Of a stretch of 64,000 nt of DNA, positions 683 through 21,422 are shown piece by piece. How positions within the stretch are numbered: position 1 is the stretch's first letter; every line of letters begins with the position of its first letter. The stretch is from NCBI RefSeq assembly GCF_023611505.1, contig NZ_CP097843.1, positions 806,001 to 870,000 of the forward strand. Direction: 5' to 3'. The stretch is from Streptococcus oralis. Lineage in GTDB: Bacteria; Bacillota; Bacilli; Lactobacillales; Streptococcaceae. The notes under the pieces were generated by a model. That model saw only the letters and a list, made by a program, of their open reading frames with translations, was not told where the DNA came from and did no database searches. Made by a program: the position numbers and the translations under genes.

Positions 683-712
683 ATCGTTAATTAAAAAATA
701 ACGATTCTTTTT
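683..712 (+). terminator. Terminator after pezT
   Basis: A 7-bp stem ATCGTTA/TAACGAT (683-689, 699-705) is followed by a T-rich run. It lies 40 nt after the pezT stop codon. The 190 nt between it and the next gene hold the promoter and operator listed separately. Confidence 0.7.
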
Positions 713-841
713 TATATTCTCTATTTTCTTCTTCATATTTTTTCAAAAGTTTTAGCATTCTTCAGTGATGATTTCCTAACAATAAAAGTACGAATTTAGC
801 GCAGTTTATGATTATTTTAAATCTTGAGGGTTATTAAACTC

Positions 842-895
842 TTGATTTTTTCAACAAGCTATGGTATCCTTTTGTTAGTTAATAAACTTACAAAA
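842..895 (+). promoter_or_regulatory. Promoter and palindromic operator of the S24 repressor operon
   Basis: A -35 TTGATT (842-847) and a -10 TATCCT (865-870) are separated by 17 nt. A 26-bp palindrome at 870-895 begins at the last base of the -10 box and runs over the expected transcription start up to the ribosome binding site. Its outer arms are TTTTGT and ACAAAA, and 11 of 13 base pairs match. The position is ideal for autorepression by the repressor encoded immediately downstream. Confidence 0.7.
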
Positions 896-904
896 GGAGA
901 ATAA

Positions 905-1588: not shown

Positions 1589-1590
1589 GT

Positions 1591-4344: not shown

Positions 4345-4439
4345 TGATTGCGTTTTCAAAAATGTTGTATTTTATTGTGTTATTTCTTGACAATTCAAAT
4401 TAGAAAATATATGATAAAGATAATGACAGCGGTGTCATT
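4345..4439 (+). promoter_or_regulatory. pfbA promoter with LacI-type operator and possible cre
   Basis: The promoter is consensus-like: TTGACA (4387-4392), a 17-nt spacer and TATGAT (4410-4415). The operator AATGACAGCGGTGTCATT (4422-4439) covers the expected transcription start. It is an 18-bp palindrome centred on CG with one mismatched pair, and sister copies lie at 10676 and 17667. Upstream, TGATTGCGTTTTCA (4345-4358) matches 12 of 14 positions of the CcpA cre consensus, which suggests carbon control as well. Confidence 0.78.
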
Positions 4440-4499
4440 TTCTCTATTTTAAGAAAAGTAATAATAAATTGTAAATTAATAAAAATATTGGAGGTCCTT

Positions 4500-6605
4500 A
4501 TGAAACACATTTTTCATAATGAAGTATTTAGCATTCGTAAATTGAAAGTTGGAACATGCTCAGTTTTATTGGCTATTTCAATTTTGGGAAGCCAAAGTAT
4601 TTTAGCTGATGAAGTTGGTACTACTACATCACAGATTGATACAAAAGAGATTTCTAATGTAACTACCAATGATTTAGGTTACTCTCAAAATATTTCTAAT
4701 AATGATTCTATTGGAAGTATCGATACTAATTCATCTACTAATAATTTAGATAGTTTGTCAGGTGTTAATCGTGATAACTCTAATAATACTATTCATTCTG
4801 ATTCACAAGATAATAAAACTGTTGAATCTATAGAAAAATCTAATAATGAAAGTAAGAATAGTAAAGAAGATATTGTAAATGATAGCACTATAAAAAAAGA
4901 TTTTGAAAAAATTGCTTTAAATGTAAAAGATTATGGTGCAGTAGGCGATGGGGTTAATGATGACCGACAAGCAATTCAGGATACAATAGATGCAGCTGCT
5001 AAAGGATTAGGTGGAGGGAAAGTATATTTTCCTGAGGGGACTTATTTAGTTAAAGAGATTGTCTTTTTGAGAAGTCATACACACCTAGAAGTACATGAAA
5101 AAGCTACTATATTAAATGGTATCAATATCAAAAATCATCCTTCTATTGTATTCATGACAGGTTTATTCACTGACGATGGAGATCAAGTTGAGTGGGAACC
5201 AACTGAAGATATCAGTTACTCTGGTGGAACAATTGATATGAACGGAGCTTTGAATGAAGAGAGGACAAAAGCTAAGAATCTCCCTTTGATTAATTCTTCA
5301 GGAGCCTTTGCTATAGGAAATTCAAAAAACGTAACAATAAGTAATGTTACCTTTAAAGATAGCTATCAGGGGCATGCCATTCAAATTGCAGGTTCAAAAA
5401 ATGTACTAGTAGATAACTCTCGTTTTTTGGGACAAGCTCTTCCTAAGACTATGAAGGATGGTCAGATCATCAGTAAGGAGTCTATTCAAATAGAGCCATT
5501 AACCAGAAAAGGCTTTCCATATGCATTAAATGATAATGGTCAAAAATCTGAAAATGTAACGATTCAAAATTCTTATTTTGGTAAAAGTGAAAAATCAGGT
5601 GAATTAGTAACTGCAATTGGGACACATTATCAAACTGCAACAACTGAAAATCCTTCAAATATTAAAATTCTAAATAATCATTTTGATAATATGATGTATG
5701 CGGGTGTTCGCTTTACAGGATTTACTGATATTTTAATAAAAGGAAATAGGTTTGATAAGAAAACTAAAGAGGAAAGTGAACACTATCGTGAAAATGGTGC
5801 TGCTTTAGTTAATGCTTATAGTTATAAAAATGTTAAAGACGTATTAGATCTGAATAAACATGTGACTATTACTGAAAATGTATTTAATATTGCTGATGCT
5901 AAAACAAAAGCAATACGTGTTGCAAAAGATAGTGCAGACTATCTTGGAAAAGTGTCTGATATTACTGTAACAAAGAATATCATTCATAATAATTCGAAAA
6001 ATACTGAACAGCCAAACATTGAAATGTTAAGAGTCAGCGACAATTTGGTAGTGTCTGATAATATCATTTCAGGCGGTAAAGACGGAATCGTAATTGAAGA
6101 ATCTGCTGGAAGTATCACTGTCTTAAATAATCAACTTTTCAATTTAACAGGAAATCACGTTTCTTTACTTAAAACGGATTTTAATGGGACCAATTCAGAC
6201 ACAAATAATAGTGTCGGTGATTTTAATATTATAACTGAGAATGAAAGTTATAAAATCTTTTCCCAAAATTCAGACAACCACTCAGATAACCACTCAGATA
6301 ATCATGTGGAGAAATTAAAACCTGTAGTTGAAAACAAAAATAATTTAGCTAATAATTACTCAGCAAATAGTGTAGATGATAAAATTGAAAAATCAAATCA
6401 TGATTCAGATAATGTAGTAACAGTAGAAATTTCACAAAAACAAGATGATGTAACCAATATTAGTGAAGTAGTGAAGGTAAAAGATAATCAACATGCATTA
6501 CCAAAAACTGGATTAAATAAAATGGCTGAGATGGTTATAACTGTAATTGGAATTTGCCTTCTATTTGGACAATGGAGTTTAAAACGTCGTTATGAAGATA
6601 GATAG
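4500..6605 (+). CDS. pfbA: PfbA-like cell-wall-anchored beta-helix surface protein
   Basis: The 701-residue exported protein has a YSIRK-type signal (FSIRKLKVGTCSVLLA) and a Ser/Asn-rich linker to about residue 135. A right-handed beta-helix of the pectate-lyase-3 type starts at about residue 141 (LNVKDYGAVGDGVNDD). A low-complexity stalk with a short DNHS repeat at about residue 590, an LPKTG sorting signal (667-671), a hydrophobic segment and an Arg-rich tail follow. The pneumococcal homologue I recall, PfbA, binds plasmin(ogen) and fibronectin; its fold resembles polysaccharide lyases, so glycan cleavage is possible but not shown. ATG 4500 has GGAGGT at 4490; the upstream TTG is rejected. 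It heads the galT/galE transcription unit. Confidence 0.83.
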   Translation: MKHIFHNEVFSIRKLKVGTCSVLLAISILGSQSILADEVGTTTSQIDTKEISNVTTNDLGYSQNISNNDSIGSIDTNSSTNNLDSLSGVNRDNSNNTIHSDSQDNKTVESIEKSNNESKNSKEDIVNDSTIKKDFEKIALNVKDYGAVGDGVNDDRQAIQDTIDAAAKGLGGGKVYFPEGTYLVKEIVFLRSHTHLEVHEKATILNGINIKNHPSIVFMTGLFTDDGDQVEWEPTEDISYSGGTIDMNGALNEERTKAKNLPLINSSGAFAIGNSKNVTISNVTFKDSYQGHAIQIAGSKNVLVDNSRFLGQALPKTMKDGQIISKESIQIEPLTRKGFPYALNDNGQKSENVTIQNSYFGKSEKSGELVTAIGTHYQTATTENPSNIKILNNHFDNMMYAGVRFTGFTDILIKGNRFDKKTKEESEHYRENGAALVNAYSYKNVKDVLDLNKHVTITENVFNIADAKTKAIRVAKDSADYLGKVSDITVTKNIIHNNSKNTEQPNIEMLRVSDNLVVSDNIISGGKDGIVIEESAGSITVLNNQLFNLTGNHVSLLKTDFNGTNSDTNNSVGDFNIITENESYKIFSQNSDNHSDNHSDNHVEKLKPVVENKNNLANNYSANSVDDKIEKSNHDSDNVVTVEISQKQDDVTNISEVVKVKDNQHALPKTGLNKMAEMVITVIGICLLFGQWSLKRRYEDR

Positions 6606-7323
6606 AATTTGCTCAATACAAGGTAGCGCTAAAGAGAACGAAGATAGCGTAGATTACAAAAACCAATATTTCTGGATTATAGATGGAGCAACAGATTTAT
6701 TTAATGCAAAAGACTCTATAGGTTATTCAGTTTCAGAAGTATCTCACCTTATTTCTGAATGTCTCAAAAAGTATTGTGACGATTCGTTATCATTGAAGAA
6801 AATTTTCGAGCTTGCTTTAGATGACGTTAGAACAAGAATAGAGATAGATAAGTGTGAATTTGATGATTATTACCAGTTACCAACGTTTGCCTTTATTTTT
6901 GCAAAATTGTCTGATATAAAACTAGAATACATAATGATTGGCGATTGTGTTATGATAGTCAACAATCAAGTTATTACAGACCATAGAGTAGATTGTCTTT
7001 TTGAGCAAGGAAAATTTTCAATCAAAACTAATCATGAAGTTGATAAAAAGACAATATTACAAAATATTAGGAAGCTAGCTAATAAACCAGAAGGATATTG
7101 GATAGGTTCACTAGACAAAAGTAGTATAAATCATGTTATAAATGGTAGCTTGGAAGTAACTAGTAATCATATTGTTTTAATGACTGATGGTTTTTACGAT
7201 TTTTATACTCAAAATTCAGGATACAATTTTGGAGAGTTAATTGAAATGAGAAAAGAATCTACAAATATTGATCCAATTTATGGTAAAAAAGATGATGCAA
7301 GTATTTTGATAATTGATGTTTAA
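6592..7323 (+). CDS. PP2C-type Ser/Thr phosphatase
   Basis: The 243-residue cytoplasmic protein has the PPM metal-binding signatures in order: KENEDS near the N terminus, WIIDGATD (about residue 28), IGDC, LMTDGFYD (about residue 200) and a C-terminal DDAS. These aspartates bind the two metals in PP2C enzymes. It is not the housekeeping StP phosphatase, which would sit beside the StkP kinase; no kinase is encoded here. The start overlaps the pfbA stop by 14 nt, so translation is probably coupled. The substrate is unknown; the galactose and PhoU neighbours suggest metabolic or phosphate signalling. Confidence 0.8.
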   Translation: MKIDRICSIQGSAKENEDSVDYKNQYFWIIDGATDLFNAKDSIGYSVSEVSHLISECLKKYCDDSLSLKKIFELALDDVRTRIEIDKCEFDDYYQLPTFAFIFAKLSDIKLEYIMIGDCVMIVNNQVITDHRVDCLFEQGKFSIKTNHEVDKKTILQNIRKLANKPEGYWIGSLDKSSINHVINGSLEVTSNHIVLMTDGFYDFYTQNSGYNFGELIEMRKESTNIDPIYGKKDDASILIIDV

Positions 7324-7343
7324 AATAATTTCATCATATAATG

Positions 7344-7382
7344 CACTATAAAGACAGTTATCTATACGAGTTCTTTATAGTG
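7344..7382 (+). other. Intercistronic hairpin between PP2C and PhoU genes
   Basis: An 11-bp perfect stem, CACTATAAAGA (7344-7354) with TCTTTATAGTG (7372-7382), fills most of the 82-nt gap. There is no T-run, so it is more likely an mRNA-stability or processing element than a terminator. Confidence 0.6.
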
Positions 7383-7405
7383 TAATTGATTATTGAGGTT
7401 AGATA

Positions 7406-8044
7406 ATGTTAAGAAAGCATTTTGACAATGAAATTATTGAGTTGTCTAATAATCTAGAAGATGTATGGGCTTCTATAATAAAAAAGTATGAAATGATATT
7501 TGATGACTTAACCGAAGTTCAAAAACAAAGTATTATAGATAATGATCTATTAATTAATGAAGCTGTTGTTACAATAGATATGAAAGGTATTGAACTCATC
7601 TGTTTACAACATCCTGTTTCTGTTGATTTGAGAAAAATTATAACTATAGTAAAATTATCCACAGATATTGAACGCATTGGTGATCGAGTCGTTGAAATAG
7701 TTAAGAATTTAAAAAATATTCATACAATGCATGAATGGGGACCATTATTTTATGAAATGCTGAAAATACATTTTGAACTAGGCGAGTACTTAAAGAAAGC
7801 TTTATTATGGTTTAAGAAGAGAAATTATGAGTTTGACGTATATGACTATAATAAAAAATATCATTTAATATCTAATTTATGTCAAAAACTAGGAGATAAA
7901 GCAGTAGAGAATTTTCTTATTGAACCCAAAAATGTTGATGAAGCTATTGTATTTTTAGAAGTTGTTAATATTCTTGATAAGATATCCCATACAACACAAT
8001 CTATTTATAAATGGTTAGATTATCAGGAAAGAGGAGTATTATAG
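7406..8044 (+). CDS. PhoU-like phosphate signalling protein
   Basis: The 212-residue helical protein has two PhoU-type three-helix repeats. The conserved metal-binding-type motif of the first (SVDLRKIITIVKLSTDIERIGDRVVEI) is clear, and a weaker second copy runs near residues 155-205. Housekeeping PhoU proteins sit after pstSCAB and dampen phosphate uptake and PhoR signalling. Here it is instead in an adhesin/galactose operon, with no pst genes in the window. A role in sensing phosphate freed by this operon's metabolism is an inference. Confidence 0.82.
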   Translation: MLRKHFDNEIIELSNNLEDVWASIIKKYEMIFDDLTEVQKQSIIDNDLLINEAVVTIDMKGIELICLQHPVSVDLRKIITIVKLSTDIERIGDRVVEIVKNLKNIHTMHEWGPLFYEMLKIHFELGEYLKKALLWFKKRNYEFDVYDYNKKYHLISNLCQKLGDKAVENFLIEPKNVDEAIVFLEVVNILDKISHTTQSIYKWLDYQERGVL

Positions 8045-8060
8045 ATAAAGAGGAGTAAAT

Positions 8061-9536
8061 ATGCAGACAATAGTAGATAATTTTGTTAATAGAGTTATTG
8101 AATATGGAATTTATAAACCGATGGACCAGATATATATAAAAAATAGAGTTTTGGCCTTAATCGGGGAAGAAGGAACTGATAAGATTTCAAATGATAGTGA
8201 TCTTAAAAAATTAAAAGACGATTTAGTAGAAATAGCTTTAAAGAATGGTAAAATTGCTGATTTAGGTGAGGCGAAGGAATGTTTAGGTGCAGAGCTGATG
8301 AATTTCATCATTCCATTACCAAGTCGCCTTAATGATATTTTTTGGAGTTCATATGATGTTTCGCCACAGGAAGCAGTTGAAGAGTTCTATCAGCTAAGTA
8401 AAGATAGCGACTATATTAAATTGTCAGCTATCTCTAAAAATATAGCTTTTCATACTGAAACTAATTATGGTTCACTTGAAATTACAATCAATTTATCAAA
8501 ACCGGAAAAAGATCCGAAAACAATCGCGGCAGAGAAATTAGTAAAGTCATCTAATTATCCAAAATGTTTACTTTGTATGGAAAATGAAGGTTATCAGGGG
8601 AGAATAAATTATCCAGCACGTGCTAATCATAGAATTATTCGATTGGAACTGGGAGACGAAGTATGGGGGTTCCAGTATTCTCCATACTCATATTTTAATG
8701 AGCATGCGATATTCTTGAATAGTCAACATGTACCTATGGCTATTACGTCCAAAACATTTGAACAATTATTGGAGATTGTTGATATTTTACCAGGGTATTT
8801 TGCTGGTTCAAATTCTGATCTTCCTATCTCAGGAGGATCTATCCTTAGTCATAATCACTACCAGGGAGGAAAACATATTTTCCCAATGGAAAAAGCAAAA
8901 TTTGAGAGAGAATTTCTTTTTAAAGACTTTGAGGATATTAAAGCTGGGATTATAAAATGGCCGATGTCAGTGATTAGGCTACAAGGTGAAAATAAAAATC
9001 GTTTGGTAGAATTAGCCACTAAAATCCTAGATACCTGGAGAGAATATTCAGATTTAGACGTAAACATTATTGCTAAGACTGAAGATATTCCACACCATAC
9101 GGTGACTCCTATTGCTCGTAAAGTGAATGGGAGATATGAATTGGATATTGTTTTGAGAGATAATCATACTACTGAAGAATACCCAGATGGTGTTTACCAT
9201 CCTCATCAAGATGTACAACATATTAAAAAGGAAAACATCGGGTTAATTGAGGTGATGGGACTTGCGATTTTACCACCTCGTTTGAAAACAGAGTTAGAAG
9301 AAGTTGAGAAATATCTTTTAGGAAAAGATAACGCAATTGCTGATTATCATTTAGAATGGGCCGTTCAATTGAAAGAAAAATATCCTGTCCTTAAAGAGGA
9401 GGAGGTTCATAGAGTAGTTCAACATGAAGTAGGGCAAGTATTTGCGAGAGTTCTCGAAGATGCAGGTGTTTATAAGAATACTCAAAACGGACATGAAGCA
9501 TTTATGAGATTTGTTAAATCGGTTGGAATTAATTAG
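8061..9536 (+). CDS. galT: UDP-glucose--hexose-1-phosphate uridylyltransferase
   Basis: The 491-residue protein is the Firmicutes-type GalT of the Leloir pathway. It swaps UMP between UDP-glucose and galactose-1-phosphate. Visible are the Cys pair LLCMENEGY, the LNSQHVPM segment and the HNHYQGG His motif of the active site. Length is normal for the class. It lies 16 nt after the PhoU gene and 12 nt before galE. No galK is present nearby, so galactose-1-phosphate must come from elsewhere. Pneumococci have two galT copies, and by context this looks like the pfbA-linked one. Confidence 0.95.
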
Positions 9537-9548
9537 GAGGAAATAAAA

Positions 9549-10562
9549 ATGGCAATATTGGTAACAGGCGGAGCTGGTTATATTGGTAGCCATACCGTAG
9601 TAGAATTACTAAATTTAGGAAAGGAAGTCGTTATTGTCGACAACCTTTCAAACTCAAGCATTTTAGTATTAGATCGTATTGAAGCAATTACAGGGCAACG
9701 TCCTGCGTTTTACGAATTAGATGTTTGTGATAAACAAGGATTGAGAAAAGTTTTTGAACAAGAATCTATTGAGGCTGCAATTCATTTTGCAGGATACAAA
9801 GCTGTCGGCGAATCCGTGCAAAAGCCTGTGATGTACTACGAAAATAATATTATGAGTACATTATCTCTTGTTGAAGTGATGTCAGAGTTTAATGTTAAAA
9901 AGATTGTATTTTCATCGAGTGCGACTGTATACGGCGTTCACAATCAGTCTCCTCTTATTGAAACGATGCCAACAAGTGCAACGAATCCGTATGGGTACAC
10001 AAAAGTGATGCTTGAACAAATTTTAAAAGATGTTCATGTAGCAGATTCAGAGTGGAGTATTGCGTTGCTTCGTTATTTCAATCCGATTGGTGCTCATGAG
10101 TCTGGGTTGATTGGAGAAGATCCATCAGGCATTCCTAACAACTTAATGCCTTTTATTGCACAAGTAGCGGTAGGTAAGCGACCAGAGCTAAGTGTTTTTG
10201 GAGATGATTATGATACGGTAGATGGTACTGGTGTTCGCGATTATATCCATGTAGTGGATTTAGCGATAGGGCATATAAAAGCTTTAGAAAAAGTATCTGA
10301 AAAAACAGATGTTTATATTTATAACCTTGGTTCAGGAGAAGGCACAAGTGTATTACAACTTGTAAATACATTTGAAAGTGTTAATAAGGTTCCAATTCCG
10401 TATAAAATTGTACCAAGACGATCAGGAGACGTTGCGACTTGTTATGCAAATGCAGATAAGGCGTATAAGGAATTAAATTGGAAGACTACAAAAACGGTCG
10501 AAGACATGTGTAGAGATACATGGAATTGGCAATCAAAAAACCCTAATGGATACAATAAATAA
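9549..10562 (+). CDS. galE: UDP-glucose 4-epimerase
   Basis: The 337-residue short-chain-dehydrogenase-fold epimerase interconverts UDP-galactose and UDP-glucose. The NAD-binding GGAGYIGSHT is at the N terminus, the catalytic Ser in FSSSATVYG, and the YGYTK motif supplies Tyr and Lys. A good ribosome binding site (TAGGAGGAAA) precedes ATG 9549. It ends the pfbA unit; no clear terminator was seen before the next promoter at 10637. Confidence 0.96.
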   Translation: MAILVTGGAGYIGSHTVVELLNLGKEVVIVDNLSNSSILVLDRIEAITGQRPAFYELDVCDKQGLRKVFEQESIEAAIHFAGYKAVGESVQKPVMYYENNIMSTLSLVEVMSEFNVKKIVFSSSATVYGVHNQSPLIETMPTSATNPYGYTKVMLEQILKDVHVADSEWSIALLRYFNPIGAHESGLIGEDPSGIPNNLMPFIAQVAVGKRPELSVFGDDYDTVDGTGVRDYIHVVDLAIGHIKALEKVSEKTDVYIYNLGSGEGTSVLQLVNTFESVNKVPIPYKIVPRRSGDVATCYANADKAYKELNWKTTKTVEDMCRDTWNWQSKNPNGYNK

Positions 10563-10628
10563 TAAAGTTCAAGTAGTCTTGTAACATGTATATATTAAAA
10601 AAATTAAAAAAATTTAAAAAAAAACAAT

Positions 10629-10693
10629 GAAAGCGCTTGACAAAGTAAACGGTTACATTGTATAATACAAATATGAATGACACCGATGTCAAA
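10629..10693 (+). promoter_or_regulatory. Promoter of the 2H/ABC unit with operator and cre-like site
   Basis: TTGACA (10637-10642), an 18-nt spacer and TATAAT (10661-10666) form a strong promoter. AATGACACCGATGTCAAA (10676-10693) is the second copy of the operator found before pfbA, again just past the -10. Inside the spacer, AGTAAACGGTTACA (10644-10657) fits 13 of 14 cre positions. A partial cre (TGAAAGCGCTT, 10628-10638) overlaps the -35, so CcpA repression is likely. Confidence 0.78.
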
Positions 10694-10715
10694 AAATATA
10701 AAAGAAGGTCTGTTT

Positions 10716-11372
10716 ATGAAAAACTTAACAAAAATTAAGTTCAAAGAGAACGGAGAATTTAATCATTTTCCCGGAAATACAGTTGTAGCAAATCTTTATA
10801 CTAATTCAGATTTGATGGAAGTTGTTGATATCATTCAATCACGCTATAGAGAGTTACCATTTATAGACAAATTCACATTAACTCCAAGAGATTCTATTCA
10901 TATGACTGTAATTGAATTGCTTTGCCATGAAAATCGTGAGCCTGAATTTTGGAGTAGCCATCTACCATTGGATACGCCATTACAAGAAATTCATGATTAC
11001 TTTGCAAAACAACTAGAAATTTTCCCATTGCTAAACGAAGATATTCATATGCGTGTGACTGAAATGGGAAATCAAAACATTTTAGTAGAACCAGCCGATG
11101 AAAAATCAGCTAAACGATTAGAAGAAATTAGAACATATGTTTCTGAAAAAGCAGGTGTTCGATTCCCTAATCATGATCGCTATCAATTCCATATCTCAAT
11201 TGGATATCTTCGAGTTCCATTAACTGAAGAAGAAAATGAAGAGTTTACTAAAGTGAAAAAGGAATTAACCGAAGTTCTGCTTGAAAAGATTCCTGTCATT
11301 ACAGTAAATCGTATCGATTACACAGTATTTGAAGATATGAGACGCTTTGTTCCATATTGCGAAAAATTTTAA
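10716..11372 (+). CDS. 2H-family phosphoesterase (2'-5' RNA ligase-like)
   Basis: The 218-residue cytoplasmic protein has the two 2H active-site motifs, H62-M-T64 (SIHMTVIEL) and H159-I-S161 (YQFHISIGYL). A KFxxxGxxxxFPGNTVVANL-like N terminus recalls DUF1868-type members. 2H enzymes act on 2',5' or cyclic phosphodiesters in RNA, nucleotides or sugar phosphates; the substrate cannot be read from sequence. ATG 10716 is chosen because AGAAGG lies 7 nt before it. An ATG at 10677 lies within the operator and the expected transcription start and is rejected. It leads the ABC importer unit, so it may process the imported compound. Confidence 0.75.
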   Translation: MKNLTKIKFKENGEFNHFPGNTVVANLYTNSDLMEVVDIIQSRYRELPFIDKFTLTPRDSIHMTVIELLCHENREPEFWSSHLPLDTPLQEIHDYFAKQLEIFPLLNEDIHMRVTEMGNQNILVEPADEKSAKRLEEIRTYVSEKAGVRFPNHDRYQFHISIGYLRVPLTEEENEEFTKVKKELTEVLLEKIPVITVNRIDYTVFEDMRRFVPYCEKF

Positions 11373-11409
11373 AATAAAATTATAATTAAAAATAAAAAGG
11401 AGATTTCAT

Positions 11410-12489
11410 ATGAAAAAATCTAAATTATTATCGTTTTTAGCTGCAGGGGTTGCGGTTACAACATTGGCAGCATGTTCAGGTGGTTCAACTAATTCATCAA
11501 ATTCTTCGAGCGATACACCTCAATCAGAAGAAAAAGCTGATAAGAGCCAAGAATTAGTAATTTATTCTAACTCTGTTTCAAACGGACGTGGAGATTGGCT
11601 AACTGCTAAAGCAAAAGAAGCTGGTTTCAATATTAAAATGGTTGACATTCCAGGTGCTCAGTTGGCAGATCGTGTTATTGCTGAAAAAAATAATGCAGTA
11701 GCTGATATGGTATTTGGTATTGGAGCTGTTGACTCAAATAAAATTAGAGATCAAAAATTACTAGTACAGTACAAGCCTAAATGGTTAGATAAAATTGACC
11801 AATCTTTATCAGATAAAGATAATTATTACAATCCTGTAATTGTTCAACCATTGGTCTTGATTGGTGCTCCTGATGTTACTGAAATGCCAAAAGATTGGAC
11901 TGAGTTAGGTAGCAAGTATAAAGGTAAATATTCAATTTCTGGGCTCTCAGGTGGAACAGGACGTGCTATTTTGGCAAGTATCCTTGTTCGTTATCTAGAT
12001 GATAAAGGAGAATTGGGTGTTTCTGAAAAAGGTTGGCAAGCAGCTAAAGAATATTTGGAAAATGCGTACACTCTTCAAAAGGGTGAAAGTTCAATTGTTA
12101 AAATGTTAGATAAGGATGACCCAATCCAGTACGGTATGATGTGGGGTTCTGGTGCATTAGTTGGACAAAAAGAAAACAATGTTGTATTTAAAGTAATGTC
12201 TCCTGAAATTGGTGTTCCGTTTGTAACTGAACAAACAATGATTTTGAATACTAGTAAGAAACAAGCTTTAGCTAAAGAATTTATTGATTGGTTTGGTCAA
12301 ACAGAAATTCAAGTAGAGTACAGCAAAAACTTTGGTTCTATTCCTGCAAATACTGAGGCAGTGAAAGAGTTACCAGAAGCTACTAAGAAATTTGTTGATC
12401 AAGTGAAACCGCAAAGTATTGATTGGGAAGCTGTTGGAAAACATTTGGATGAATGGGTTGAAAAAGCTGAACTAGAATATGTAAAATAG
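11410..12489 (+). CDS. ABC importer substrate-binding lipoprotein (Fe3+/2-AEP/polyamine type)
   Basis: The 359-residue lipoprotein has lipobox LAAC with the lipidated Cys at residue 22, then a Ser/Asn-rich linker and a type-II periplasmic-binding fold. The family (SBP_bac_6/8 type) carries ferric iron, 2-aminoethylphosphonate, polyamines or thiamine-like ligands. No iron-binding tyrosine pair typical of FbpA/FutA is obvious, so iron is not favoured. It lies 37 nt after the 2H gene. A hairpin separates it from the ATPase gene, which fits the usual excess of binding protein over transporter. Confidence 0.85.
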   Translation: MKKSKLLSFLAAGVAVTTLAACSGGSTNSSNSSSDTPQSEEKADKSQELVIYSNSVSNGRGDWLTAKAKEAGFNIKMVDIPGAQLADRVIAEKNNAVADMVFGIGAVDSNKIRDQKLLVQYKPKWLDKIDQSLSDKDNYYNPVIVQPLVLIGAPDVTEMPKDWTELGSKYKGKYSISGLSGGTGRAILASILVRYLDDKGELGVSEKGWQAAKEYLENAYTLQKGESSIVKMLDKDDPIQYGMMWGSGALVGQKENNVVFKVMSPEIGVPFVTEQTMILNTSKKQALAKEFIDWFGQTEIQVEYSKNFGSIPANTEAVKELPEATKKFVDQVKPQSIDWEAVGKHLDEWVEKAELEYVK

Positions 12490-12517
12490 GACATAAGTGT
12501 AAATTTTAAAATTCCAG

Positions 12518-12565
12518 GTCTCTCTAAAGTTTCTAAACCTACATGAGAAATTAAGAGAGACTTTT
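12518..12565 (+). terminator. Intra-operon attenuator after the binding-protein gene
   Basis: GTCTCTCT (12518-12525) pairs with AGAGAGAC (12554-12561), with further pairing inside and TTTT after it. It probably stops part of the transcripts so that the binding protein is made in excess of the ATPase and permease. Confidence 0.68.
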
Positions 12566-12592
12566 CATTTATAAGTAAAGGAAGTTAGTAAT

Positions 12593-13603
12593 ATGATTAA
12601 ATTTGATAACATTCAAATTAAATACGGTGATTTTATCGCGATTGATAATCTAAATTTAGATATTAAGGAAGGAGAATTCTTTACCTTCCTTGGACCATCT
12701 GGTTGCGGTAAATCAACAACTTTAAGAGCTTTGGTAGGTTTTTTAGACCCTTCATCTGGAAGTATTGAGGTTAATGGCACAGATGTTACGCACTTGGAGC
12801 CTGAAAAACGTGGAATCGGGATCGTATTCCAATCTTACGCACTATTTCCAACAATGACAGTTTTTGATAATATTGCTTTTGGTTTAAAAGTTAAAAAAGT
12901 TGCTCCAGATGTTATTAAAGCCAAGGTTTCTGCAGTGGCTGCTAAAATTAAGATTTCAGATCAACAATTGCAACGTAACGTTTCAGAATTATCTGGAGGA
13001 CAACAGCAGCGTGTAGCTTTAGCTCGTGCTCTTGTTTTGGAACCTAAAATCCTATGTTTGGATGAACCCTTGTCAAACCTAGATGCAAAATTACGTGTGG
13101 ATTTGAGAAAAGAGTTGAAACGTCTTCAAAAAGAATTGGGAATTACAACTCTATATGTTACACATGACCAAGAGGAAGCGTTAACGCTATCTGATAGGAT
13201 TGCTGTCTTTAATAATGGTTTTATTGAACAAGTGGGAACACCAGTAGAAATTTATCATAATTCTCAAACAGAATTTGTATGTGATTTCATTGGAGACATT
13301 AACGTACTTACAGATGAAACTGTTCACGGAATTCTTCTAAATAATGCTCATGTTCTTTTGGAAGATAAAAAAGGTTACATTCGTTTAGAAAAAGTTCGCT
13401 TCAAACGTGAAACGGATCAGGATTTTGTCTTAAAAGGTTCAATTATTGATGTGGAATTTTCAGGAGTTACAATTCACTATACTGTTCAGGTATCTGAAAA
13501 TCAAATTCTTAATGTAACAAGTATCGATAGTCAGTCAGCTATTAGATCTGTCGGAGAAAGTGTGGAATTATTTATCACACCATCAGACGTTCTGCAATTT
13601 TAA
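12593..13603 (+). CDS. ABC importer ATPase (PotA/FbpC type)
   Basis: The 336-residue ATPase has Walker [10 protein letters not shown] (about residues 34-42), a Q-loop, the signature [15 protein letters not shown], Walker [14 protein letters not shown] and the H-loop [11 protein letters not shown]-terminal regulatory extension of TOBE type follows (about residues 240-336). It energises import through the fused permease 11 nt downstream. Length and layout fit polyamine/iron/aminoethylphosphonate importers. Confidence 0.93.
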
Positions 13604-13614
13604 GGAGGTGCAGT

Positions 13615-15306
13615 ATGCGTCATAAATTAAATTGGAAAGATTGGCTCATTCGTTTAGGCTTAATCTGGTTCTTGGTAACTTTCATCATTTATCCAAACTT
13701 TGATTTAGTAGTTAATGTATTTGTGAAAGGTGGGGAGTTTTCACTTGATGTCGTACAACGAGCTTTTAAATCTCAACGTGCGATTCAGAGTATTTTTAAC
13801 AGTTTCAAGTTAGCATTCTCACTAATTATAACTGTTAATGTTGTTGGTGTACTTTGTGTATTGTTTACAGAATATTTTGATATTAAAGGAGCTAAAATAT
13901 TAAAACTAGGATACATGACGTCACTAATCTACGGTGGAGTAGTTTTGGCTACTGGTTATAAATTCGTTTATGGACCATATGGAATGATTACCAAATTTTT
14001 ACAAAGTATTATTCCATCTTTAGATCCTAACTGGTTTATTGGTTATGGTGCAGTTCTATTTATTATGACATTTTCTGGTACTGCTAATCACACCTTATTC
14101 CTAACTAATACAATTCGTAGTGTAGACTATCATACTATTGAAGCTGCACGTAATATGGGTGCAAAACCATTTACAGTGTTTAGAAAAGTAGTATTGCCAA
14201 CTCTAATTCCTACTTTATTCGCTCTGACAATTATGGTTTTTCTAAGTGGGTTATCAGCAGTAGCAGCACCTATGATTGTTGGTGGGAAAGAATTCCAAAC
14301 TATTAACCCAATGATCATAACATTTGCTGGAATGGGAAATTCTCGTGACTTAGCTGCCTTTCTAGCAATTATTTTGGGTATTGCCACTACGATTTTGCTT
14401 ACTATTATGAACAAGATCGAAAAAGGCGGAAATTATATTTCTATTTCTAAAACAAAAGCACCTTTGAAAAAACAAAAAATCACATCTAAACCATGGAATA
14501 TCATTGCACATATTGTTGCTTATGCTTTGTTCACTGTTTTCATGTTACCATTGATTTTCATTGTATTGTATTCATTTACTGACCCAGTTGCAATACAGAC
14601 AGGAAACTTATCATTATCAAACTTTACTTTAGATAATTATAAGTTATTCTTTAGTAATAGTGCTGCGTTCTCTCCATTCTTAGTCAGCTTTATATACTCT
14701 ATCATTGCAGCAACTACTGCAACAGTTCTTGCTGTTGTGTTTGCGCGAGTAGTTCGTAAACATAAAGCTCGATTTGATTTCTTGTTCGAATACGGAGCTC
14801 TTCTTCCTTGGCTATTACCAAGTACACTTCTAGCAGTTAGTTTATTGTTCACTTTCAACCAACCTCAACTTTTAGTCTTTAACCAGATTCTAGTTGGTAG
14901 TTTAGTAATTTTGCTAATCGCTTATATTGTTGTAAAAATTCCATTCTCTTATAGAATGGTACGTGCAATCTTATTTAGTGTTGATGATGAGATGGAGGAT
15001 GCTGCTAGAAGTATGGGGGCTTCACCATTTTACACAATGATGAAGGTTATTATTCCTTTCATCTTGCCGGTTGTTCTCTCTGTTATCGCACTCAACTTTA
15101 ACTCTTTATTGACCGATTTCGATTTATCTGTATTCCTTTATCATCCATTGGCTCAACCATTAGGTATTACGATTCGTTCTGCAGGTGATGAAACAGCAAC
15201 ATCTAACGCACAAGCTCTTGTATTCGTTTATACAATTATTCTAATGATTATTTCTGGAACTGTGTTATACTTCACACAGAGACCACGCGGTAAGAAAAGG
15301 AAATAG
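13615..15306 (+). CDS. ABC importer permease, two fused MetI-type domains
   Basis: The 563-residue integral membrane protein has about 12 hydrophobic segments. The two EAA loops that dock on the ATPase are visible: [16 protein letters not shown] (about residue 178) and [16 protein letters not shown] (about residue 463). The single fused permease is the FbpB/PhnU-V-like arrangement of ferric-ion and 2-aminoethylphosphonate transporters. It lies 11 nt after the ATPase and 2 nt before the mgtC-like gene, clearly one operon. Confidence 0.92.
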
Positions 15307-15308
15307 TA

Positions 15309-16019
15309 ATGCAATCATCCGGCATGGGACTACCATACATTGAAATTATCATTAGAGTCGTATTATCTTTGGTCATAGGAAGTATTATTGGCTTGGAAAG
15401 AGGAAGTAAATCTCAACCAGCAGGTATTCGTACACATAGTATCGTTTGTATGGCTGCTTGTTTGATTATGATGACTAATGAATTTGTATCTTATAAGTTT
15501 GGAACAGGAGATCCGACACGTTTAGGTGCTCAAGTTATTTCTGGTGTTGGTTTTCTTGGAGCTGGAACAATTCTTATCACAGATAAAAAGAAGGTTACGG
15601 GTCTGACAACTGCAGCAGGAATCTGGGCTTCTGCAGGAATAGGTTTAGCTATTGGAGTAGGTTTTTATGAAGGTGCTCTGTTAGTAGCTATTTCTGTGTG
15701 GAGTGTGATTACTATGTTTCAGCCTTTAAAAAAATATCTTCAAAGTCGTTCAAAAGTTATTGAATTATATATTGTAGTTAAATCTACTGAGGCATATAAT
15801 CGAGTATTGGTTTATTGTGCAGAAAATGGAATTCGATTGAATGATTCAAGAACTGCTTTTGGAGATGTTAATACTGAAAGAATTGAATATTTTGATGTTC
15901 CAGACAAAAGAATAGCATCATTTATGACTCTAGAACTTTCAGGTAAGTTTGAACATCTTAAACTAATGGAAGAAATAGCAGATATTGTTGGTGTTATTTA
16001 TGTTGAAGAAGTTAGTTGA
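15309..16019 (+). CDS. MgtC/SapB-family membrane protein (copy 1)
   Basis: The 236-residue protein has the MgtC/SapB N-terminal membrane domain (RVVLSLVIGSIIGLERG, GIRTHSIVCMAA, GVGFLGAGTI, GLTTAAGIWASAGIGLAIG). A roughly 90-residue soluble tail that looks ACT-like follows. Family members affect Mg2+ and phosphate homeostasis, and in Salmonella MgtC inhibits F-ATPase and restrains phosphate uptake. Two nt separate it from the permease. Its placement as the last gene of an importer operon suggests it counters an ionic or phosphate load, an inference. Confidence 0.87.
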   Translation: MQSSGMGLPYIEIIIRVVLSLVIGSIIGLERGSKSQPAGIRTHSIVCMAACLIMMTNEFVSYKFGTGDPTRLGAQVISGVGFLGAGTILITDKKKVTGLTTAAGIWASAGIGLAIGVGFYEGALLVAISVWSVITMFQPLKKYLQSRSKVIELYIVVKSTEAYNRVLVYCAENGIRLNDSRTAFGDVNTERIEYFDVPDKRIASFMTLELSGKFEHLKLMEEIADIVGVIYVEEVS

Positions 16020-16028
16020 TATAGAATA

Positions 16029-16064
16029 AACAAAGGGGCAGTTATTCTTGTCCCTTTGTTTTTT
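16029..16064 (+). terminator. Terminator of the 2H/ABC/mgtC operon
   Basis: AACAAAGGG (16029-16037) pairs perfectly with CCCTTTGTT (16052-16060), then TTTT. It starts 10 nt after the mgtC stop codon. Confidence 0.85.
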
Positions 16065-16113
16065 AGATTAAAAATTACTCAAGATTATTTTCAATGTATA
16101 AAGGTGTACATAA

Positions 16114-16476
16114 ATGAAGGTGTATAATATTAATTTTGACTGTGGAAGAATAACGTATTTTGAATATAATTCTTTAATGCAAGTGTATAGATTTCATTCT
16201 TTTTATGATATTTGTGAAATGGTATTTTCGTCTTCTTTACCAGCTGATGATATACTAACAAAGCTTATTGATAAGGAAAAGATTATTCCGATCTTAGACT
16301 GCTATGTTCAAATGTTATTAGATACATTTATAGTTTCAATGGATTTTACCAAAAATGATTCTTTATATTTTTATGGTAAGTTATTTTCATACAAGTTTAT
16401 CAGTTGTGAAGTAGAAAGAATTGTAAAGAATAAAAATTTTAATTGTCAATGTTATTTTTTTGAATCGGAAGAATAG
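16114..16476 (+). CDS. Unknown 120-residue protein
   Basis: No family is recognised. The protein is rich in Phe, Tyr and Cys (four cysteines, two of them in a C-terminal NCQC), has no signal peptide and no certain membrane segment. An AAAGGTG tract 7 nt before ATG 16114 supports translation. It lies between the importer operon terminator and the LacI gene, and I recall a similarly placed small gene in the pneumococcal locus. No known operator or strong promoter is visible before it. Confidence 0.6.
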   Translation: MKVYNINFDCGRITYFEYNSLMQVYRFHSFYDICEMVFSSSLPADDILTKLIDKEKIIPILDCYVQMLLDTFIVSMDFTKNDSLYFYGKLFSYKFISCEVERIVKNKNFNCQCYFFESEE

Positions 16477-16544
16477 AGTACAAAATAGAAATTTTGAAAT
16501 TAAAGTTTTTGTTAAGATACATTAAAATATTTTACTAAATTCTC

Positions 16545-16572
16545 TTGTTAAAAAAAGTAAATATTGTATAAT
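16545..16572 (+). promoter_or_regulatory. Promoter of the LacI-family gene
   Basis: TTGTTA (16545-16550), a 16-nt spacer and TATAAT (16567-16572). The three-copy operator of this locus is absent here, so the regulator does not appear to repress itself through that site. Confidence 0.65.
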
Positions 16573-16604
16573 AATATTAGATAAATCATAAATGGAGGAC
16601 TAAA

Positions 16605-17606
16605 GTGAAAAATTTAAACGATAAAAAGGTAACTATTTATGATATTGCACATTTATCAGGTTTTTCTCCAAAAACTGTTTCACGTGTTATTAACGGTGGT
16701 GAAAAGGTAAAAGAAGAAACTTATCGAGCTATTCAAAAAGTCATTGATGAGTTGTCGTATGTTCCAAATGCATATGCAAAAAATTTGACTAAGAAAGAAA
16801 CTACAAACATTTTGATTTCCGTTAAAAAGATTGATTCTTTTCCCTTGATTTGGTTTCAAACTTTACTAGATAGAGTTCTACAAACTTGTAAAGAGTTTGG
16901 TGTAAACGCCATTGTTGAATACTTTGGTGAAGAAGATACGATTAGGAATTCAATAATTTCAAGTACAGGAAGCTTAATAGATGGAGTAATAGTATTTTAT
17001 GAAAGTAAAGACGATATTCGGATTAATTATTTACAGAAGAATAATATGCCTTTTATAGTTTTTGGAGAATCTCGAACACCTGATGTTGTTTATGTATCTA
17101 ATAACAATTTTCAAGCCACTTATGATATGATGGAATTAGTAACAAAAGAGAATATTAAAAGTATGTTGTTACTTATGGGAGGGGAATCTCTTGTTAATAA
17201 GGATCGTGAAAAAGGTATTCGTGCTTTTTTGACTGATAAAAATTATTTAATGGATTTGCAAGTTATTTATGGTTTAACTACAATTGATTCAGTTTATTCA
17301 TATGCTATAAACCATTTAACTAAACAAAACCATCCAGATATGATATTTGTTTCTGGGGATGAGAAGGTTCAAGGGCTGATTCGTGCGTGCTATGAGAAGG
17401 GGATTATCATTCCTGATGATATTTCAATAATTGGATTCGATAATATTCCTATTTCGCAATATTATACTCCAGCTCTGTCTACTATTTCTCCTAATTATGC
17501 TATGTTAGCCCAAAAAATGATAGAAGGTGTTTTAGCAATCGTTAACGGTGAAAATATAGAATCCGTTGAAATATCTTCAAAAATTATTAGAAGACAAAGC
17601 TTTTAA
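16605..17606 (+). CDS. LacI/GalR-family transcriptional regulator
   Basis: The 333-residue protein has an N-terminal LacI helix-turn-helix (VTIYDIAHLSGFSPKTVSRVIN, residues about 8-30) with hinge VPNAYAKNL. A periplasmic-binding-like effector domain follows, ending in IIGFDNIPISQYYTPALSTI. The start is GTG 16605 with TGGAGGA 7 nt before it. It lies amid three units carrying the palindrome AATGACAnCGnTGTCATT with a central CG, as LacI-family operators have, and is the obvious candidate to bind it. The effector is probably a sugar or sugar derivative but cannot be read from sequence. Confidence 0.92.
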   Translation: MKNLNDKKVTIYDIAHLSGFSPKTVSRVINGGEKVKEETYRAIQKVIDELSYVPNAYAKNLTKKETTNILISVKKIDSFPLIWFQTLLDRVLQTCKEFGVNAIVEYFGEEDTIRNSIISSTGSLIDGVIVFYESKDDIRINYLQKNNMPFIVFGESRTPDVVYVSNNNFQATYDMMELVTKENIKSMLLLMGGESLVNKDREKGIRAFLTDKNYLMDLQVIYGLTTIDSVYSYAINHLTKQNHPDMIFVSGDEKVQGLIRACYEKGIIIPDDISIIGFDNIPISQYYTPALSTISPNYAMLAQKMIEGVLAIVNGENIESVEISSKIIRRQSF

Positions 17607-17630
17607 TCGGTAAAAAATACCGATTTTTTA
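17606..17630 (+). terminator. Terminator of the LacI-family gene
   Basis: ATCGGTA (17606-17612) and TACCGAT (17618-17624) form a 7-bp stem followed by TTTTT. The stem overlaps the last base of the stop codon. Confidence 0.8.
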
Positions 17631-17659
17631 TTTGATAAAATATTAAAATAGTAGTAGAA

Positions 17660-17684
17660 TATAATTTATGACACCGATGTCATT
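17660..17684 (+). promoter_or_regulatory. -10 box and third copy of the LacI-type operator
   Basis: TATAAT (17660-17665) is followed directly by TATGACACCGATGTCATT (17667-17684), whose core TGACACCGATGTCA is identical to the copy at 10678. No good -35 is seen at normal spacing, so the promoter may need an activator or be weak. Confidence 0.7.
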
Positions 17685-17702: not shown

Positions 17703-18404
17703 ATGTCTACAATTTTTAATCATTCATTTAATAGTATTGTCGAGTTAAGGCATGTTATTTCAATATTAATCGCTTGTGCATGTGGGTGGGCAATTGGTTA
17801 TGAGCGTAAGGCACGTAACAAGCAAGCAGGAGTCAAAACGCATATAATTGTTGCTTTAACGTCGGCTTTAATGATGATTCTCTCAAAAGAAGCATTTTTA
17901 GATACACCATCCTATGATACTTCTAGGGTCGCAGCTCAAATTGTTAGTGGTATTAGCTTTATAGGTGGGGGAATTATTTTTACCCGGGATAAGAAAGTTA
18001 GTGGAATTACTACTGCTGCTGGGATATGGGCTACTGCTGGTATAGGTATGGCAATTGGTGCTGATTTTTGGATATTTGGTTCCTTTTGTAGTTTTATAGT
18101 TGTTCTTGTGCAATTAGTGACACACAGTAATGGTAGAAATCATGAAATTTATCAAGCAAAGATAGTGTTAGAAACAATTGATATTTCTTTACTTGGTAAG
18201 ATTTATACTAATCTAGGGACACTTGATTTCAGAAAATATAATGTTGAGTTAAAAGAACAGTTGTCTAATAATTCTTATGATATTTTGATTTCAATTGAGA
18301 ATGATAAGGAGATTTCGATTATAGATATTGAGGATTTCTTACTTAATGAAGATAAAAATATAAAAATAAAAGAGTTTAAGCTAAAGAATTATATGAAGAG
18401 TTAA
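17703..18404 (+). CDS. MgtC/SapB-family membrane protein (copy 2)
   Basis: The 233-residue paralogue of the protein at 15309 has the same membrane signature (GWAIGYERKARNKQAGVKTHIIVALTSALMM, GISFIGGGIIF, GITTAAGIWATAGIGMAIGA). Its soluble tail is clearly diverged. Start ATG 17703 has TAGGAGG before it. It is a single-gene unit under the same operator as pfbA and the importer, so the two MgtC-like proteins are probably co-induced. The mobile element begins in the spacer downstream. Confidence 0.87.
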   Translation: MSTIFNHSFNSIVELRHVISILIACACGWAIGYERKARNKQAGVKTHIIVALTSALMMILSKEAFLDTPSYDTSRVAAQIVSGISFIGGGIIFTRDKKVSGITTAAGIWATAGIGMAIGADFWIFGSFCSFIVVLVQLVTHSNGRNHEIYQAKIVLETIDISLLGKIYTNLGTLDFRKYNVELKEQLSNNSYDILISIENDKEISIIDIEDFLLNEDKNIKIKEFKLKNYMKS

Positions 18405-18776: not shown

Positions 18777-19133
18777 ATGAAAAGATGTATACGTAGTATT
18801 CGGAAACAATTTCGCTTAACAGAAACGGAGGAAAAACAAATACTAGATTTAATGAGAGAGAAAGGAGAGGATAATTTTTCTGATTTTCTCCGTAAAAGCT
18901 TACTATTGTCTGATGGACAAAAACAGATGGAAAAATGTTTCAACCTTTGGAAACAGCAAAAGTTGGAACAAATTAGTCGTGATGTTCATGAAATATTAAT
19001 AATTGCTAAAATAAATCATCAGGTTACTCAAGAACATGTTTCTATTTTGTTAACTTGTATTCAGGAATTAATTAAAGAGGTAGAAAAAACAAGTCCTCTT
19101 AGTGAAAATTTTCGTAACAAATACATGAGGTAG
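18777..19133 (+). CDS. Relaxosome accessory protein
   Basis: The 118-residue protein has a basic N terminus (KRCIRSIRKQFRLTETEEKQI) resembling a ribbon-helix-helix DNA-binding segment, then a helical, probably coiled region. Similar proteins precede mobC and the relaxase in Tn5252-like elements. AAGGAGGAAAAG before ATG 18777 is a strong ribosome binding site. A palindrome 28-63 nt upstream could be its operator. Function in nicking or oriT recognition is inferred from position. Confidence 0.7.
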   Translation: MKRCIRSIRKQFRLTETEEKQILDLMREKGEDNFSDFLRKSLLLSDGQKQMEKCFNLWKQQKLEQISRDVHEILIIAKINHQVTQEHVSILLTCIQELIKEVEKTSPLSENFRNKYMR

Positions 19134-19137
19134 TAGA

Positions 19138-19503
19138 GTGGAGCACCGATATAGAACAAATTTAAAAAAAGTCTTTTTATCTGACCTAGAATTAGTCAAA
19201 TTGAATGAAAATATCTCAAAAAGTAACTGCTTATCATTCTCAGAATATGCTAGACGAACTCTACTAGATCCTGGTATGAATTTTATCACCATTGATACAA
19301 ATAGTTATCAAGATTTGATTTTTGAATTAAAACGAATCGGAAATAATATTAATCAAATAGCCAGAAGCATAAATTATTCGAATTTAATAACGGAAGTTGA
19401 ATTAAATGAGTTGAGAAAAGGTATAGAAGAGTTAATAGTAGAAGTGGAGAAAGATTTTCTTATTCAATCTGAAAAATTGAGGAAATTTTATGGTCATCAC
19501 TAA
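19138..19503 (+). CDS. mobC: MobC-like mobilization protein
   Basis: The 121-residue protein has an N-terminal RHH-like region (FLSDLELVKLNENISKSNCLSFSEYARRTLL) and the MobC hallmark ELKRIGNNINQIARSIN at about residues 63-80. MobC proteins help melt oriT and position the relaxase. The start is GTG 19138 with GAGG upstream; the stop overlaps the relaxase start by 14 nt. Confidence 0.85.
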   Translation: MEHRYRTNLKKVFLSDLELVKLNENISKSNCLSFSEYARRTLLDPGMNFITIDTNSYQDLIFELKRIGNNINQIARSINYSNLITEVELNELRKGIEELIVEVEKDFLIQSEKLRKFYGHH

Positions 19504-21319: not shown

Positions 21320-21353
21320 ACAGTTTCCTAAAAAGTATATATAGCATAGTTTC

Positions 21354-21404: not shown

Positions 21405-21422
21405 TGTTTTAGGAGACATTGA

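What the first reader, a model, noticed from the sequence alone, without database searches (positions are those of the whole stretch)
4422..17684. A three-site regulon joins a surface adhesin, an importer and MgtC proteins
The palindrome AATGACAnCGnTGTCATT occurs at 4422, 10676 and 17667, each time just after the -10 box of a unit: pfbA-PP2C-phoU-galT-galE, 2H-ABC-mgtC, and mgtC copy 2. I noticed no other copy in the window by eye. The CG-centred form is typical of LacI-family operators, and a LacI-family gene lies at 16605, itself without the site. A host-binding beta-helix protein thus appears co-regulated with uptake and metabolism genes, suggesting it helps release or capture the nutrient that induces the system.
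Basis: partly seen in the sequence, partly recalled or inferred. Interest (0 to 1): 0.75.

Follow-up and report, generated by a model that had tools for sequence, protein, structure and literature searches.

The report
Local LacI-type regulon including adhesin PfbA
Three matching DNA switches in an oral Streptococcus appear to let one LacI-type repressor control, together, the surface protein PfbA, an importer and sugar-phosphate enzymes, which suggests that this well-known adhesin belongs to a nutrient-scavenging system.

Summary
The core TGACAnCGnTGTCA lies in the sites at 4422, 10676 and 17667, each 6-9 bases after a -10 box; the exact 15-mer ATGACAnCGnTGTCA occurs nowhere else in the 2.06-Mb genome.

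That the nearby LacI-family gene is the regulator is strongly supported by comparison. Of 284 genus genomes, 25 carry its orthologue. All 25 have the site, and all 48 of their sites lie within 15 kb of lacI; 40 of 259 genomes without the gene have a match. The site follows pfbA when gene order changes (Granulicatella, a divergent Streptococcus). The same palindrome also accompanies a 35-45% identical LacI beside the 2H gene in Paenibacillus and Bacillus. pfbA was found in 23 of 279 genus genomes, every one with this lacI. The third unit (mgtC2) is a rare addition.

My reading: a local LacI repressor regulon for scavenging a phosphorylated, probably galactose-1-phosphate-containing, glycan fragment. 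The circuit is well supported by comparison; the substrate is inferred (about 0.4). No binding was tested.

The parts
4422..4439 (.). Operator 1, AATGACAGCGGTGTCATT, just 3' of the -10 of pfbA
   Evidence: the same 18-mer upstream of pfbA in 15 of 15 named loci that have pfbA (L035-L049)
4500..6605 (+). pfbA: YSIRK/LPXTG beta-helix surface protein
   Evidence: PDB 4mr0 E 1.7e-273, 3zpp 2.1e-243; LPKTG read
6592..7323 (+). PP2C-like phosphatase
   Evidence: PF13672
7406..8044 (+). PhoU-domain protein, below the full-length PhoU cut-off
8061..9536 (+). galT (second copy in the genome, without galK beside it)
9549..10562 (+). galE
10628..10642 (+). cre-like sequence TGAAAGCGCTTGACA overlapping the -35 of the 2H promoter (cre consensus recalled, imperfect match)
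   Evidence: exact in 10 of the 17 rows
10676..10693 (.). Operator 2, AATGACACCGATGTCAAA, just 3' of the -10 of the 2H-ABC-mgtC unit
10716..11372 (+). 2H phosphoesterase (PF08975/DUF1868), HMT and HIS motifs
11410..12489 (+). Lipoprotein solute-binding protein of the FbpA/AfuA/PhnS fold class
12593..13603 (+). ABC ATPase
13615..15306 (+). Fused two-domain ABC permease
15309..16019 (+). mgtC copy 1
16114..16476 (+). Conserved 120-aa protein, no family hit
16605..17606 (+). LacI-family regulator, proposed repressor of the operators; corresponds to pneumococcal SP_1821 by locus order (inferred)
17667..17684 (.). Operator 3, TATGACACCGATGTCATT, upstream of mgtC2; exact site at this position in 3 of 25 LacI genomes
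17703..18404 (+). mgtC copy 2, 42% identical to copy 1 over 107 residues

Best explanation
A LacI-family repressor (16605) binds a CG-centred palindrome placed over the transcription start of two units, pfbA-PP2C-phoU-galT-galE and 2H-ABC-mgtC (plus mgtC2 in a few strains), and blocks them until an inducer is present. The proposed work: PfbA, on the surface, binds or cuts an acidic, phosphate-bearing glycan. The ABC importer takes up a phosphorylated sugar or sugar phosphodiester. The 2H enzyme opens a (cyclic) phosphodiester to a sugar phosphate. GalT and GalE feed galactose-1-phosphate into UDP-sugars without a galactokinase. PP2C, PhoU-like and MgtC proteins handle the phosphate load. The inducer is probably galactose-1-phosphate or a close phosphorylated derivative. 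Supported by sequence comparison: operator, regulator and regulon membership (my confidence about 0.9). Inferred: repression rather than activation, inducer and substrate (about 0.4). No binding or expression experiment was done here.
For: Co-occurrence: 25 of 25 genomes with the LacI orthologue have the exact 15-mer, against 40 of 259 without it (control pattern read backwards: 15 of 284, two of them LacI genomes); 48 of 48 sites in LacI genomes lie within 15 kb of lacI on the same contig (Fisher p 1.4e-18, not corrected for kinship). Rearranged loci keep the site: in Granulicatella elegans (L040) pfbA lies downstream of lacI with its own AATGACAGCGGTGTCATT; in L094 pfbA and 2H are divergent, each with a site, pfbA's with one core change. 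Outgroups: LacI (35-45% identity) plus 2H plus the palindrome in 4 of 4 loci (3 Paenibacillus, 1 Bacillus). In the four whole genomes of 5-9 Mb a tightened pattern occurs 1, 3, 2 and 4 times, control 0; 7 of these 10 places lie in this cluster. The recognition helix S(P/F)KTVSRV is kept. pfbA in 23 of 279 genomes, all 23 LacI-positive. Two of the four outgroup loci (L051, L052) have a beta-helix protein; the one searched, L051's, has PfbA as its best match among solved structures (3zpp 9.3e-20, 4mr0 2.8e-17). Function: galT without galK, while galK-galT lies elsewhere. 2H catalytic motifs in 13 of 13 sequences compared. 2H neighbours include two NAGPA phosphodiester glycosidases (L053) and a GDPD-like protein with a related ABC importer and a PP2C-like protein (L091). 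[quoted passage not shown] PfbA has an electropositive groove (PMC3718772); H293, H377 and Q331 are invariant in 11 of 11 aligned sequences, with 296 Q/E, 320 K/R and 333 E/D.
Against: No binding or expression was measured. The 25 genomes are related, so the Fisher value overstates the evidence. The galT-2 mutant result could come from a second-site change or another metabolite (lacD also rose 87-fold); wild-type cells on galactose contain Gal-1-P, yet galE-2 was slightly lower on galactose than on glucose (ln ratio -0.57, PMC4595796). The 3 remote places in Paenibacillus and Bacillus lie beside sulfatases, a Gfo/Idh oxidoreductase, esterases, a metallo-beta-lactamase-fold lipoprotein and other binding proteins. 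None of the 4 outgroup loci matches galT, galE, PP2C or phoU, and 2 of 4 have no PfbA-like protein, so the ancestral substrate may be another acidic glycan. G. elegans lacks galE and phoU matches at the locus; L050/L093 has no pfbA, galT or galE there. The binding protein was published as iron-binding (PMC4738293, PMC6682666). PfbA showed no lyase activity on the polysaccharides tried (PMC3718772). PfbA K327, K338, G339, Y401, R405 and the aromatic residues 441 and 443 are not kept in the Paenibacillus proteins.
Confidence: 0.7

Rival explanations
1. The same LacI regulon exists, but the importer is an iron (or other metal) system; PfbA and the sugar enzymes are secondary.
For: Published: SPD_1609 called iron-binding, operon 804 raised in an iron-transporter triple mutant, lower iron in the deletion mutant in iron-depleted medium (PMC4738293, PMC6682666; passages). 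Solved relatives by profile and by fold are mostly ferric-binding proteins, which also hold the top ranks.
Against: The paired tyrosines seen in the 4 aligned iron proteins are not at the aligned place (profile alignment only). The same fold list holds the hexose-phosphate binders AfuA and VcA0625, with the highest identity of the 50 rows (19-21%). LacI regulators, GalT, GalE and 2H do not fit iron (family knowledge). AfuABC was itself taken for an iron transporter before hexose-phosphate binding was shown (PMC4546632).
Confidence: 0.12
2. The regulon scavenges an acidic glycan or its fragments where phosphate is not the key feature (for example a sulfated or uronic glycan); 2H and GalT serve side branches.
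For: Remote sites in one Paenibacillus genome beside sulfatases and a Gfo/Idh oxidoreductase. PfbA is a beta-helix protein of the polysaccharide-lyase/GH28-like class with an electropositive groove (PMC3718772).
Against: In streptococci the units carry 2H, PP2C, PhoU-like and GalT proteins, which by family act on phosphate esters or phosphate signals; the scans of the regulon proteins show no sulfatase or uronate-metabolism family apart from weak PfbA matches to galacturonidase models. PfbA was inactive on the glycosaminoglycans and pectins tried.
Confidence: 0.25
3. The palindrome serves another regulator, and lacI is only linked to it.
For: lacI itself lacks the site in the window.
Against: Palindrome and lacI co-occur in 25 of 25 genomes; in 3 Paenibacillus loci the site lies directly upstream of lacI; in G020 a cluster remnant keeps only the lacI 3' part, the site and the start of mgtC2. 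The four other LacI-family genes found in the genome lie far away.
Confidence: 0.06
4. Chance palindromes without function.
For: Two of 100 window shuffles reach three matches at up to 3 mismatches; 40 of 259 LacI-negative genomes hold an exact 15-mer somewhere.
Against: Exact cores, promoter position, and conservation across genera and gene orders.
Confidence: 0.01

Closest known systems
LacI/GalR-family local repressors (LacI, GalR, CcpA fold class)
   Same: LacI HTH plus periplasmic-binding-like domain (CcpA, PurR and LacI among the solved relatives); CG-centred palindromic operator at the promoter; regulator gene inside the cluster
   Different: Regulon joins a cell-wall adhesin, a 2H phosphoesterase, PP2C, PhoU-like and MgtC proteins; no autoregulatory site in the window
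Pneumococcal SP_1821-SP_1836 block (PfbA, GalT-1/GalE-2, 'operon 804')
   Same: Same genes, and the same two operators in loci labelled S. pneumoniae (L042, L048). The block is described in PMC6722419 and its parts in PMC4380338 and PMC4738293
   Different: In the passages read the importer is called phosphate or iron transport, and none of them describes the operator or the joint control
AfuABC hexose-phosphate importer
   Same: ABC importer of the same binding-protein fold class, once called iron-specific (PMC4546632)
   Different: Only 16-19% identity; permease here is one fused chain; ligand residues not tested; AfuA does not bind glucose-1-phosphate
PhnSTUV / PhnT2-U2-S2 (2-aminoethylphosphonate) importers
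   Same: Best NCBIfam relatives of binding protein, ATPase and permease
   Different: All scores below the family cut-offs; no phosphonate-degrading gene recognised in the regulon
Cyclic phosphodiesterases of the 2H family
   Same: Two HxT/S motifs; DUF1868 domain
   Different: The only solved relative found is Atu0111 (2fsq); substrate unknown

Membership tests
LacI/GalR family regulator | N-terminal LacI HTH and C-terminal periplasmic-binding-like domain | tested here: met
   PF00356 3.6e-15, PF13377 4.5e-19
LacI/GalR family regulator | Linked CG-centred palindromic operators conserved with the regulator | tested here: met
   25 of 25 genomes; 48 of 48 sites near lacI
LacI/GalR family regulator | Physical binding and induction by a ligand | not testable with these tools
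   needs gel shift and expression work
PfbA | YSIRK signal, beta-helix core, LPXTG anchor | tested here: met
   PDB 4mr0 and 3zpp
2H phosphoesterase | Two HxT/S motifs | tested here: met
   13 of 13 sequences, the window's included
FbpA-type ferric-binding protein | Paired Tyr iron ligands in the C-terminal lobe | tested here: not met
   Aligned segment reads QYGMMW where 4 of 4 iron proteins shown have YY (profile alignment only; role of the pair recalled)
AfuA-type hexose-phosphate-binding protein | Fold and sugar-phosphate contact residues (His, Asp, Glu, Ser, Thr) | tested here: inconclusive
PhoU (full length) | Score above the TIGR02135 cut-off | tested here: not met
   81.6 vs 130.25 bits; PhoU domain PF01895 is met
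Leloir-type gal operon | galK with galT and galE | tested here: not met
   the only galK over the cut-off lies with another galT at C1:440-442 kb

The most novel reading that the evidence does not exclude
PfbA is not primarily a host-protein adhesin but a surface enzyme (or dedicated binding protein) for a phosphodiester-linked glycan. The LacI protein senses galactose-1-phosphate or a sugar cyclic phosphate. The importer brings in such a compound, which 2H and GalT turn into UDP-galactose without galactokinase. It would be a galactokinase-independent salvage route, old enough to be shared in outline with Paenibacillus.
Probability: 0.25. Interest if true: 0.75.

Novelty: new member of a known kind. 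Interest (0 to 1): 0.55.

Why it matters
PfbA has a solved structure with a conserved charged groove but no known small ligand, and the importer has been called a phosphate and an iron transporter in print. A conserved shared operator ties both to one metabolic repressor with GalT, GalE and a 2H phosphoesterase. It turns an open question (what the PfbA groove binds) into a short list of phosphorylated glycans to test, and argues for rechecking the importer's annotation.

Tried and rejected
Rejected: free galactose as inducer (galE-2 ln ratio -0.57 on galactose against glucose in wild type, PMC4595796; galT-1 49-fold higher in a galT-2 mutant than in wild type, both on galactose). Rejected: mgtC2 as a core member (exact site at that position in 3 of 25 LacI genomes: G000, G067 and G020; for G067 judged by its place 66 bases past lacI). 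Rejected: wider regulon in this genome by strict matches (no further exact 15-mer; the two next-best places inside ORFs; 15 weaker ones not inspected).

Led nowhere: text search for the motif strings and for several SP_ tags at once. Single-sequence PDB search of the binding protein found nothing; the 7-row profile did. The class-wide PF08975 search found only the window's own genome among 398, the order-wide one 8 of 395. The structure model of the binding protein is of middling confidence, and the fold search does not separate iron from sugar-phosphate binders. Of the 40 LacI-negative genomes with a site I inspected the surroundings of 7 (L096-L102): no cluster of regulon genes there, only weak hits to generic ABC-ATPase (L098) and LacI-family (L101) sequences. 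In one search the identity of the operator positions is by construction, because the sequences were anchored on the motif; only the low identity of the flanks (190 of 540) is informative. RegPrecise, which may list this regulator, could not be consulted.

Not-in-print statement: searches of the held open-access library gave no paper whose listing or read passages describe this operator or joint control. Most listed papers were not opened, subscription papers and supplements were not seen. No paper was read whole: passages and part of one section of PMC4595796.
Full report
Observation. With up to three mismatches the window holds exactly three copies. The 18-mer is perfect at 4422; the copies at 10676 and 17667 differ by two and one flanking bases, while the core TGACAnCGnTGTCA is exact in all three and found nowhere else in the window. 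In the whole 2.06-Mb genome the exact 15-mer ATGACAnCGnTGTCA occurs only at these three places, and first-order Markov copies of the window gave none. Each copy starts 6-9 bases after a -10 box, so a bound protein would cover the likely transcription start. I take 10716 as the start of the 2H gene; the longer ORF begins inside the operator.

Gene content. Pfam and NCBIfam give pfbA, PP2C, a PhoU-domain protein, galT and galE after site 1; a 2H phosphoesterase (DUF1868), a binding lipoprotein, an ATPase, a fused permease and MgtC after site 2; a second MgtC after site 3. The LacI-family gene at 16605 has no site of its own. The genome has a normal galK-galT pair elsewhere, so the regulon's galT and galE are a second, kinase-less set.

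Comparative test in the genus. Among 284 genus genomes, 25 encode an orthologue of the LacI protein at E up to 1e-40 and 65 hold the exact 15-mer (the control pattern, read backwards, is in 15). All 25 LacI genomes are among the 65; 40 of the 259 others have a match. All 48 sites in LacI genomes lie on the same contig within 15 kb of lacI, mostly at two distances of about 6 and 12 kb. The Fisher value (1.4e-18) ignores kinship. Of the 40 other genomes I looked at 7 and saw no cluster of regulon genes there. The PfbA core was found in 23 of 279 genomes examined, and all 23 are LacI genomes. An exact site at the mgtC2 position is in only three genomes.

Comparative test across gene orders and genera. 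In the 15 named loci with pfbA (14 Streptococcus, 1 Granulicatella elegans) both pfbA and 2H have the site. In G. elegans pfbA lies downstream of lacI and has its own copy, and a further site precedes PP2C-galT. A second locus of the same genus group (L088, genome G328, unnamed) has both sites although its pfbA is only 58% identical. In L094 pfbA and 2H are divergent and each promoter has a site, the pfbA one with one core change. In L093/L050 the site lies between lacI and a duplicated 2H gene. In three Paenibacillus and one Bacillus locus a LacI protein 35-45% identical lies beside the 2H gene with one to three copies of the same palindrome, in the three Paenibacillus loci also directly upstream of lacI. 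In these four whole genomes a tightened pattern occurs 1, 3, 2 and 4 times with a control of 0, and 7 of the 10 places lie in this cluster. L051 and L052 also carry a beta-helix protein; phmmer of the L051 protein puts PfbA first among solved structures. The recognition helix S(P/F)KTVSRV is shared by these regulators.

What it does. The circuit that best fits is repression: the operator lies over the start of transcription, as in many LacI-family systems (family knowledge). The 2H promoter also carries a cre-like element over its -35, exact in 10 of 17 rows, which suggests catabolite control (consensus recalled, imperfect match). The gene set points to phosphate esters of sugars. The 2H catalytic motifs are kept in 13 of 13 sequences. 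In other genomes 2H sits beside phosphodiester glycosidases (L053), or beside a PP2C-like protein, a GDPD-like protein and a related ABC importer (L091). A PP2C-like protein also precedes 2H in L090 and L092, although by pairwise BLAST only the L091 one matches the window PP2C at E below 0.001, and the L092 one has no Pfam hit. Published data agree in part: when the main galT of pneumococcus D39 was deleted, galT-1, which belongs to this regulon, was 49-fold higher on galactose (PMC4380338; passages). Galactose alone does not induce galE-2 (PMC4595796, Table 1). An inducer that builds up when Gal-1-P is not cleared would explain both; a second-site change or another metabolite would too.

PfbA. 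The structure paper (PMC3718772; abstract and passages) reports an electropositive groove with a conserved centre, no known glycan ligand, and no lyase activity on the polysaccharides tried. In my alignment H293, H377 and Q331 are invariant in 11 of 11 sequences including the 25%-identical Paenibacillus proteins, with 296 Q/E, 320 K/R and 333 E/D, whereas K327, K338, G339, Y401, R405 and the aromatics at 441 and 443 are not kept there. This favours a working site over a pure protein-binding surface, without proving catalysis. Oral streptococcal receptor polysaccharides contain a phosphodiester bond (PMC2147599; passage), which makes them one candidate ligand; this is inference.

The importer. 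It has been called a phosphate transporter (PMC6722419) and an iron transporter (PMC4738293, PMC6682666, PMC13317198; passages). The profile of the binding protein is nearest to ferric-binding proteins, with an aminoethylphosphonate-binding protein and a pyridoxal-phosphate-binding protein among the hits, but the tyrosine pair of the iron proteins is not at the aligned place. The fold search ranks ferric proteins and the hexose-phosphate binders AfuA and VcA0625 within 2 Z units on a model of middling quality, so the ligand stays open. AfuABC itself was first taken for an iron transporter (PMC4546632; abstract and passages).

Against. The three remote copies of the site in Paenibacillus and Bacillus lie near sulfatases, a Gfo/Idh oxidoreductase, esterases, a metallo-beta-lactamase-fold lipoprotein and other binding proteins. 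None of the four outgroup loci matches galT, galE, PP2C or phoU, and two have no PfbA-like protein. Some nearer relatives lack galE, phoU, galT or pfbA at the locus. The ancestral theme may therefore be acidic glycans in general. No binding or expression could be tested.

Verdict. A real, conserved, compact regulon of a known kind (LacI-family), with a well-supported regulator and a striking member, PfbA. The joint control was not described in the passages I could read; the substrate hypothesis is testable.

Noticed in passing
window 18777-23348: A MobC-like protein, a 609-aa relaxase and an integrase directly 3' of mgtC2: a mobilizable element abuts the regulon.
   Followed up: partly
window 171-3006: Zeta-toxin-like fragment, S24-peptidase HTH regulator and a UmuC-type polymerase.
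   Followed up: partly
L095 13509-14034 (G020): Remnant of the cluster: 3' part of lacI, the operator and the first bases of mgtC2 remain, the rest was not found.
   Followed up: partly
L103 9353-10193 (G157): The PP2C match runs straight into the 3' part of galE; no phoU or galT match, while both operators stay.
   Followed up: no
L093 8208-8857: A second, divergent and possibly broken 2H copy between operator and main 2H gene.
   Followed up: no
L090-L092: A PP2C-like gene directly precedes the DUF1868 2H gene in three other Lactobacillales genomes, in L092 apart from any importer seen; the pair may act together.
   Followed up: partly
window 10645-10656: A second CG-centred element, GTAAACGGTTAC, lies between -35 and -10 of the 2H promoter and is partly kept in relatives; possible site of another LacI-family protein.
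   Followed up: no
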